64,000 nt of DNA. Origin: Imbricaverruca yamaguchii. Its lineage: Eukaryota; Arthropoda; Thecostraca; Neoverrucidae. The number at the start of each line of letters is the position of its first letter. Within the stretch, counting starts at the first letter, position 1. The translations under genes were made by a program, and so were the position numbers. The stretch spans positions 961,001-1,025,000 of the forward strand of contig JAOTOL010001459.1 in the NCBI GenBank assembly GCA_034440575.1, given 5' to 3'. Under the pieces are notes generated by a model. The model made no database searches, had not been told where the DNA came from, and saw only the letters and a list, made by a program, of their open reading frames with translations. Of this stretch, positions 52,301 to 64,000 are shown in pieces.

Positions 52301-55300
52301 CGGGTTCACCACTCACAACACTCGGGACATTTCCCAATCACGCGGCCTACCGGCGAAAGGGCGTGGGCGGCGCCATTAGCCGTGAACGTGCATGAAGCGC
52401 ATCAAGAACCACCCAATAAACAAACAAACAAACCAGTATTTGGATAGAAAAAGTGTTAGGGCGTTGTGATTTGGTGAGGATAATATCTATGTTCCTGGCA
52501 TTGAAAATATACTATTTAAAATTTGCTTCTTGTTAGTATCAGGCATGCTTGTCAAACAACAATGTGTGTGCAATTATTTTCAGACTACTCCAATCAATCT
52601 TTTCGGAAAGAAGAAGTTGATAAACATCTGGGCTCTGAATATCGGGGAGGATAATGTTTTGGATATCAAAAATATAAGATAAGGTTATGTTTCCAATAAA
52701 TACATAGTGTTTAGTGGCATAGTCTTTACATAGTCTTTAGTGGCAGCCAATTTCAGTACATTGTCAGGAATCAGCACCAAGTAGTAGCATGTAGATCGCC
52801 GATTCATGCTTCAGTATGTGACTGGACATCCGCGTGTTTAATGTGTGACATACGTTCCGGTGGTGTGTTTTAATACAAGACTCGCCGCCACTCGACCGTG
52901 CTTCAGTATGCCACTGACCACCACTGGAGCATGCTTCAGTATGCTACTGACCACCACTGCAGCATGCTTCAGTATGGGATTCCCCATCGTCATGTTGTGT
53001 TTCCCAGCATGTGACAGCCGCCGCCGGCCATGTTTCTCAGCGAGCGACAGCCTCACCGTCAGTCGTGTTTCTCAGCGAGCGACAGCCTCACCGTCAGTCG
53101 TGTTTTTCAGCATGTGACAGCCGCCGCCGGCCGTGTTTCTCAGCGTGCGACAGCCTCACCGTCAGTCGTGTTTCTCAGCGTGCGACAGCCTCACCGTCAG
53201 TCGTGTTTCTCAGCGAGCGACAGCCTCACCGTGAGTCGTGTTTCAGTGCGCCACGGCCGCCGACCTGGTGCCGGCCGACGGGCTGGAGACGATGCAGACG
53301 CTGTGTCCGGCGCTGCTGTACCAGAGCCAGGCAACCGGCTGTCTGGACAGAATGGCCCAGCGGCTGCCGGTCCACAAACGCGGCAAACCCAACCCGCTGG
53401 AGGGTGAGTGACTGAGCTGGATGTCGCGCGCCACCCCGAGGCCACCTCGTCTCCGTCACGTCCCCGAGACGGTGCCGGACATGGTCCCGAACCTCAGCGC
53501 CTCGTGGCCATGCCGGTAGCGACACACACCGGTACCGGCGCTTGTGTCGTGCAGTGCCTGGTGCGAACCGCCCACCCTCTCACGCTCCGCTCCGTATCTG
53601 ATACGGCGTTACGGCACAGCGGCCGAAAGTCTCCCGTTTCTGGCGATTCGGACGGCAAGTTTGTCGTTGTTTGTTGTGTACTTTTCCAGTAGAGTAGTGA
53701 TCGGCTGGTGTGAGCTGCACCAAGAAAACCTGATCCTACAATTATTCGACAAATGATACCGCGAGCGTATCTAGAACATTTTTTTCGGGGGCAGAAAAAG
53801 CAGGGATCAGATGATCTCTACTGGATTCTAACCAACAGTGCAGGAGCGTGCGAATTTCTCCAGATCTAGTCGATCCAACGGAGGGCCCCTGATCCGGTGG
53901 GTCCGCCCTCGGCTGCGCTACCGATCGGAGACGTTGCCGTATGGAGGGTGTAGATGATCACCCTCCCCATTGAGCTCCCACGGGCCTCTAGGTTGCCCTT
54001 CGATATGTGCCAGGAGCCCTTACGTATCCATCTACGGGGTCGCCATTGGAGAATTGAGCGACAAGCAGCGTATGTATGGCCTCGCGGCTGTTGTCGGCCC
54101 TTAGAACGCGTTTGGTGATGCTATGTGGTCCAAAAGTCGGCACGTTGTGAAGGTTGACGAGTTGTAATTGACCAGCTGACCACCGGTCTCGGCGCCCGGC
54201 CTTGAGGTGATGAGTGCTGCCGCTGCCAGGTTTGCTTTCTTGACGAACTGATCGGTCGCCCTGCGGTGACGCTGGCGACACCTCAGTTCCGCTGGCAACC
54301 GGCTACGCCGCAGGGACGGGCCCGGCACGTGGTGTCGTTTCCGTTGGGCGGCCGGCCGCGGAAGGTGCACATCATGTTGCTTCACTGGCCTGACCGATTG
54401 TGCTCTGATTCGATCGAGTCGAACTGTTCTCTGTGTGTGCTGAGTGGACGGCTTTTTGCTCGGGTGTGTATGGCTACTCGCCCAGTCACACAGTCATGCG
54501 GTGTGGAACAATGTCTAACACCAGCTATCCCGCGATGGGGAGGGAGCGCACGGTTCATTGGAAGGGCTTGAAATGTTCAAAAGGCCAGGCACGCCGTTCG
54601 AACGCTGGGCTTGGGCTGATTACAAATATGTATTGTTTATCGATATCTACCAATCGCTGTTCCTGAAAGATGTTTTTGTTCTATCTGGCAATTGTTTCAG
54701 TTGGCCAGGTTTGTTGTTTGGCCTACGGTCGTTCAGCTATCTGATTTTGGTATTTATCAACTCGTCGACTTGTATACAACATCCGGCGGATTGCGCTGCT
54801 TTAGCCCTCTTGGTGTGCAGCAATTCATAAACCGTCTATATATATATATAAAAAGTATATAAGCGTAAAACGTCTTATATTATACCAAACCGTTTTCGCG
54901 TCACACACACACACACACACACACACACACACACACACACACACACACACACACACACACACACACACACACCGACACCGACACCGACACCGACACCGAC
55001 ACCGACACCGACACCGACACCGACACCGACACCGACACCGACACCGACACCGACACCGACACCGACACCGACACCGACACCGACACCGACACGGACAGAC
55101 ACACACACACACACACACACGTTTATATGTATATATATGAAGTTTCCATGACTCCTTCCTCAGAGTATTTTGGGTATAAGTACCATTCTTATGCTCACCA
55201 TTATGGATTGCGATAAACAAGAGTCTCGTAACACAATTCCATGTACATAGCTTATGTATGTGTGGTCTGGTAAGCAATGTCATCAACTGTTGCCATGTAG

Positions 55301-64000: not shown

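What the first reader, a model, noticed from the sequence alone, without database searches (positions are those of the whole stretch)
52806..61382. Splice-junction-like tandem arrays in five of seven introns of one ZIP transporter gene
Exon 2, 5, 6 and 7 acceptors and the exon 3 donor each have a tandem array in the adjoining intron whose unit resembles that junction. Periods differ (35, 22, 73, 44/38 and ~28 bp), so these are independent arrays, not one spreading repeat. One gene repeatedly amplifying its own splice sites is not something I know to be described. It could reflect slippage or repair at junctions, a locus-specific mutational process, or selection for redundant or decoy splice sites.
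Basis: partly seen in the sequence, partly recalled or inferred. Interest (0 to 1): 0.8.

Follow-up and report, generated by a model that had tools for sequence, protein, structure and literature searches.

The report
Repeat arrays spanning barnacle splice sites
In a barnacle-like genome packed with short tandem repeats, some repeats have copied the ends of introns, including in this metal-transporter gene; the effect is real but occurs in other genes too and has been described before in amphioxus.

Summary
The window carries an eight-exon ZIP14-like gene of a barnacle-like crustacean. Tandem arrays end on the exon 2, 5 and 7 acceptors and the exon 3 donor, and their units match those junctions better than any other place in the 64 kb (the 38-bp variant of the exon 7 array ranks second). 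The exon 6 claim fails: its 73-bp array stops about 100 bp short and does not resemble that acceptor. That this gene specially amplifies its splice sites is not supported. Minisatellites cover about 22% of ten other 10-kb stretches of the genome. Junction copies occur in 7 of 18 genes examined (ZIP, CCT, myosin): 15 of 119 junctions (12.6%), against 14-17% of intronic control positions. So a genome-wide tandem-duplication process probably catches splice junctions at about the background rate, and selection keeps the exon-proximal copy. Boundary-spanning minisatellites are known in amphioxus as "mirages"; my searches listed no report from a crustacean. Open: whether decoy sites, such as 24 strong acceptor-like copies in intron 6, are ever spliced.

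The parts
49077..64000 (+). ZIP14-like metal cation symporter gene, exons 1-8 (the stop codon lies just beyond the window)
   Evidence: Spliced model, end; Pfam Zip PF02535 E 1.8e-57; barnacle homologs 58-80% identical
52807..53246 (+). Intron 1 3' end: series of 27-35-bp units; the real exon 2 acceptor is the last member. By eye the TRF arrays of 33 and 35 bp form one series
   Evidence: one copy spans 30 nt intron + 19 nt exon
55741..55915 (+). Exon 3 donor and degenerate ~28-bp downstream copies of exon end + donor
58004..58358 (+). 22-bp array of intron 4, running with degenerate copies to the exon 5 acceptor; the 22-bp copies lack the AG
58606..58626 (+). Exact 21-nt copy of the exon 5 end, 46 bp after its donor; the splice site itself is not copied
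59293..59677 (+). 73-bp array of intron 5; not similar to the exon 6 acceptor and not abutting it
60332..61382 (+). 44/38-bp array of intron 6 ending exactly on the exon 7 acceptor; 25 of 25 intronic copies keep CAG, 23 of 25 keep a branch-site-like CTNAY 19-29 nt upstream

Best explanation
A genome-wide tandem-duplication process (replication slippage or repair, then unequal exchange) creates and expands minisatellites throughout the non-coding DNA of this barnacle-like genome. Splice junctions are not targeted; they are caught at about the rate of any intronic position. When a duplication includes a junction, only the exon-proximal copy gives a normal mRNA, because the unit lengths (35, 22, 28, 44, 38) shift the frame and the real frame is closed by stops within the arrays, so selection holds that copy. 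The intron-side copies drift and are homogenised, leaving an array whose edge member is the working splice site. Shown: the arrays, the junction copies, their occurrence in other genes, the background rates. Inferred: the mutational mechanism, the use of the exon-proximal site, the neutrality of the copies.
For: Minisatellites (period 10-250) sum to 22,305 of 100,000 bases in ten stretches taken without regard to content from contigs that had ZIP hits (5,000 bases N; small overlaps between arrays counted twice). Introns: ZIP14 17.0% array, 44 CCT/myosin introns 15.1% (24 of 44 hold an array). Junctions with a copy scoring >=30: ZIP14 5 of 14, other ZIPs 2 of 17, four CCT genes 4 of 44, myosin and two further CCT genes 4 of 44. 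Intronic controls: 16.7% of 3488, 15.0% of 7627, 16.7% of 6406, 14.2% of 4760 positions in ZIP-paralog loci; shuffled introns 0 of 2040. Of 102 junctions looked at in detail 13 have a copy; 9 of these span at least 8 nt on both sides and 12 include the splice dinucleotide. Clear cases elsewhere: ZIP paralog C1416 (58-bp unit = intron end + exon start coding VWLFAG), myosin C1082 (four intron-side copies of a 60-nt junction), CCT C217 and C1273. Arrays also start shortly after two stop codons, where there is no splice site. Stops: the open frame of exon 2 starts at 53235, of exon 5 at 58359, of exon 7 at 61301, and that of exon 3 ends at 55787, before the first donor copy at 55789. A search with 100 bases of the 35-bp array found it only at this locus (the tool says that no match does not prove rarity).
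Against: ZIP14 is higher than the other genes (5 of 14 against 10 of 105; Fisher P 0.016), though it was picked because it looked striking. Arrays in ZIP14 lie closer to intron ends than random placement gives. Neighbouring control positions are not independent, the gene sample is small and chosen for compactness, and random stretches give a higher background (25.5% of 6370) than the window upstream of the gene (8.7% of 2290).
Confidence: 0.8

Rival explanations
1. Junctions are hot spots: splicing- or transcription-linked structures at exon edges promote tandem duplication there.
For: Arrays in ZIP14 abut intron ends more than random placement gives; 5 of 14 ZIP14 junctions have copies, and ZIP14 exceeds the other genes (Fisher P 0.016).
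Against: CCT and myosin junctions are at 8 of 88, slightly below the intronic control (Fisher P 0.10). Arrays also start shortly after two stop codons.
Confidence: 0.1
2. Redundant or decoy splice sites are selected, for instance to buffer or regulate exon 7 inclusion.
For: Intron 6: 25 of 25 copies keep CAG, 23 of 25 a branch-like motif, and 24 of 25 score 6.3-10.0 as acceptors against 10.1 for the real one. Two intron 1 copies score above the real exon 2 acceptor (6.1 and 7.3 against 4.1).
Against: Other columns of the intron 6 array are as invariant as the AG. The 22-bp intron 4 copies lack AG and the intron 3 copies are weaker donors than the real one. Uses of intron-side copies would shift the frame or meet stops.
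Confidence: 0.07
3. Chance: splice-consensus resemblance of unrelated intronic minisatellites.
For: Explains the exon 6 case. Arrays are dense. The exon 7 unit copies no exon sequence.
Against: In 9 of 13 junctions with copies the copy extends at least 8 nt into both exon and intron; 0 of 2040 shuffles reach the score.
Confidence: 0.03

Closest known systems
[quoted passage not shown] globins BflGb6/9, Adh3, TnC, PGBD5)
   Same: Tandem units (10-72 bp in Adh3, about 60-160 bp elsewhere) contain the 5' or 3' exon boundary, in several genes; the regular junction stays in use (PMC3087553, PMC3902484, passages)
   Different: Reported from cephalochordates in what I read; here a crustacean, with several junctions of one gene affected and a measured intronic background
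Intron gain by tandem genomic duplication (Rogers; Zhuo 2007: both recalled and seen as references in PMC3087553; potato RdRp case PMC4974935, search listing only)
   Same: Tandem duplication that includes splice-site sequence
   Different: Here the introns already exist and the copies lie inside them; no new intron is shown
Dual-specific splice sites in tandem repeats (human UBC, PMC10809524, passages)
   Same: Arrays of repeated splice sites
   Different: There the copies are spliced and lie in coding sequence; here they are intronic and their use is unknown
C. elegans CeRep25B minisatellite near alternative exons (PMC4039745, passages)
   Same: Intronic minisatellites near splice sites
   Different: One dispersed family; here each array resembles its own junction

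Membership tests
Mirage (amphioxus-type boundary minisatellite) | Tandem unit contains an exon-intron boundary of its own gene | tested here: met
   Exon 2 and exon 5 acceptors and exon 3 donor: a copy spans at least 8 nt on both sides; exon 7 acceptor: copies reach the AG but no exon sequence
Mirage (amphioxus-type boundary minisatellite) | Minisatellite-sized unit, several copies | tested here: met
   22-44 bp units, up to 25 intronic copies
Mirage (amphioxus-type boundary minisatellite) | Occurs at several genes of the genome | tested here: met
   Copies at score >=30 in 7 of 18 genes
Mirage (amphioxus-type boundary minisatellite) | Length instability between alleles or somatically | tested here: inconclusive
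   No second haplotype of this locus found with the 35-bp array. A haplotig-like pair elsewhere has 14.5 against 12.9 copies of one 45-bp array, while three other minisatellites are equal
Mirage (amphioxus-type boundary minisatellite) | Normal mRNA despite the copies | not testable with these tools
   No RNA here; agreement of the model with barnacle proteins supports the exon-proximal sites
Mirage (amphioxus-type boundary minisatellite) | Cephalochordate host (the only hosts in what I read) | tested here: not met
   Closest named proteins are from barnacles; I take this as a range extension, not as a defining feature
Intron gain by tandem duplication | A new intron at a position not shared with relatives | not tested
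   Intron positions of relatives were not compared

The most novel reading that the evidence does not exclude
A crustacean lineage has independently evolved amphioxus-like genome-wide duplication of exon boundaries, in which whole 3' splice-site modules (branch site, tract, AG) are stamped out in tandem. Some of these copies are spliced at low level, giving a standing source of splice-site redundancy, alternative acceptors and intron sliding or gain.
Probability: 0.25. Interest if true: 0.65.

Novelty: new member of a known kind. Interest (0 to 1): 0.42.

Why it matters
It carries a phenomenon described from amphioxus genes into crustaceans and gives it a first background measure in this genome: junctions are copied about as often as intronic DNA in general. 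Such genomes offer natural experiments on how the spliceosome picks one of many near-identical acceptors, and on whether such arrays feed intron gain. For annotators it warns that splice sites in such genomes can have many near-copies.

Tried and rejected
Rejected: junction-likeness of the 73-bp intron 5 array; the C1221 junctions and the C305 last acceptor as further cases (scores 16-18). C1412 exon 2 looked by eye like a degenerate case but scored 16 and is not counted. My first random-position null was contaminated by arrays and was replaced by intronic controls. Rows dropped before the counts: six exon pairs of the CCT and myosin sets for which no join was found, with a gap in the profile between them (three, three), and all exons of families hit but not fetched (CCT C1246, C89, C1012, C1399 and others; many myosins). 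For the 17 other-ZIP junctions boundaries were set by eye and the target was 1 kb, not cut at the intron end. Other multi-exon host genes in the window: I recognised none by eye among ORFs of 95 aa or more; no family search was made for them. Papers: Canestro 2002 (PMC117041) and Zhuo 2007 (PMC1783408) not held. Not done: genome-wide uniqueness of the 22-, 28-, 44- and 73-bp units, haplotig comparison C89/C1012, RNA, DNA of related species.

Full report
What it is. The window is C1226:961001-1025000 of a 767-Mb assembly. The finding lies in a ZIP14-like metal transporter gene of eight exons (Pfam Zip). The best hit is an unnamed protein; the closest named proteins are from the barnacles Amphibalanus and Pollicipes, so I take the host to be a barnacle or close relative.

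The arrays. In intron 1, units of mostly 33-35 bp run from about 52807 to the exon 2 acceptor, which is the last member of the series (GTGTTTC...CAG). In intron 3, imperfect 28-bp copies of the end of exon 3 plus its donor follow the real donor. In intron 4, a 22-bp array runs with degenerate copies into the exon 5 acceptor, but the 22-bp copies carry AC where the real site has AG. In intron 6, 25 intronic units of mostly 38 or 44 bp lead exactly to the exon 7 acceptor; all 25 keep CAG and 23 keep a CTNAY motif 19-29 nt upstream (that CTNAY is a branch-site consensus is recalled). The 73-bp array of intron 5 neither resembles nor touches the exon 6 acceptor. One further copy, of the end of exon 5 without its splice site, lies 46 bp after the exon 5 donor.

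Is it more than chance? Yes for the resemblance: rank 1 in 64 kb for the 35-, 28-, 22- and 44-bp units (the 28-bp consensus contains the junction, and the 38-bp variant of the intron 6 array ranks second), and 0 of 2040 dinucleotide-shuffled introns reach score 30. Not clearly for a preference for junctions: 5 of 14 ZIP14 junctions have a copy against 16.7% of 3488 intronic control positions of the same gene (binomial P 0.07; 0.049 at score >=35; a per-intron simulation expects 3.3, P 0.16). A result on the other side: array blocks of ZIP14 end within 10 bp of an intron end more often than random placement gives (P 0.0003 with TRF limits, 0.00001 with limits extended by eye; weaker with wider limits).

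Is it this gene only? No. Ten 10-kb stretches, taken without regard to content from contigs that had ZIP hits, hold 63 minisatellites that sum to 22,305 of 100,000 bases, 5,000 of which are N. Counts at score >=30: four CCT genes 4 of 44 junctions (control 15.0% of 7627); seven myosins plus two further CCT genes 4 of 44 (control 16.7% of 6406); four other ZIP genes 2 of 17, one of them in intron sequence only (control in those loci 14.2% of 4760). With ZIP14 that is 15 of 119, in 7 of 18 genes. Positions in the ten stretches give 25.5% of 6370, and the 48 kb upstream in the window 8.7% of 2290. Of the 102 junctions of ZIP14, CCT and myosin, 13 have copies, 9 of which span the boundary by at least 8 nt on both sides and 12 contain the splice dinucleotide. 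The clearest are the ZIP paralog at C1416 (by eye four intron-side copies plus the real one, of intron end plus exon start; TRF 4.1 copies of 58 bp) and a myosin at C1082 (four intron-side copies of a 60-nt junction). ZIP14 does stand above the rest (Fisher P 0.016), but it was chosen for looking striking.

How it most likely works. A genome-wide tandem-duplication process fills non-coding DNA up to the edge of what selection holds. Arrays also begin shortly after two stop codons (ZIP14, C305), which a splice-specific process would not explain. Where a junction is copied, the exon-proximal copy fits the conserved protein; the unit lengths shift the frame, and the real frame is closed by stops just upstream of exons 2, 5 and 7 and just downstream of the exon 3 donor. 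Whether copies are ever spliced is unknown. With a matrix from 44 introns of the same genome, 24 of 25 intron 6 copies score like real acceptors (6.3-10.0; real 10.1); two intron 1 copies score above the real exon 2 acceptor (6.1, 7.3 against 4.1); the six intron 3 copies score 0.3-7.3 as donors against 10.5; the 22-bp intron 4 copies have no AG, but two other AGs near there (57990 and 58321) score above the real exon 5 acceptor, which scores only 1.7. So strength alone does not explain which site is right, and RNA is needed. The mutational mechanism is inferred. One haplotig-like pair, 98% identical over 4.7 kb, differs in a 45-bp array by 14.5 against 12.9 copies and in one region by different repeats, while three other minisatellites are equal.

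Known or new. [quoted passage not shown] PMC3902484 (passage) for PGBD5, naming Adh and TnC. Both say that splicing is not disturbed, and PMC3087553 proposes a route to new introns. The searches listed no such report from a barnacle or other crustacean; their lists were capped (20 of 432; 10 of 122; 8 of 10), and most subscription papers are not held. The matched passages of three barnacle genome papers (PMC8270832, PMC11331182, PMC8917513) mention none. I therefore call it a new member of a known kind. What may be new is the measured rate: junctions are copied about as often as intronic DNA in general.

Noticed in passing
L004:74-1323 (just after the window): 42-bp x 29.8 array beginning about 40 nt after the ZIP14 stop codon; by eye part of its unit resembles the sequence right after the stop
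   Followed up: partly
60332-61382: 18 of 25 intron 6 copies read CAGAGGTAGGG or CAGAGGTAGAG: an AG directly before a GTAG, acceptor-like and weak donor-like sites side by side, as in ratchet or dual-specific sites; use untested
   Followed up: no
L006:4431-4669 (C1416, minus strand): ZIP paralog with a very clear boundary-spanning 58-bp array at the acceptor of the VW... exon, the counterpart of the ZIP14 exon 3 acceptor, which has none
   Followed up: yes
G000 C305 and C1256: Haplotig-like pair, 98% identical over 4.7 kb, with one 45-bp array differing in copy number and one region built of different repeats
   Followed up: partly
G000 C89 and C1012: Apparent haplotig pair of a CCT gene in which one intron measures about 10 kb in one and 1.2 kb in the other by exon coordinates
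   Followed up: no
54902-55120: Compound CA and ACACCG array of about 220 bp in intron 2 of the ZIP14 gene, not near a junction
   Followed up: no
5824-6579: ACAG microsatellite of about 189 copies
   Followed up: no
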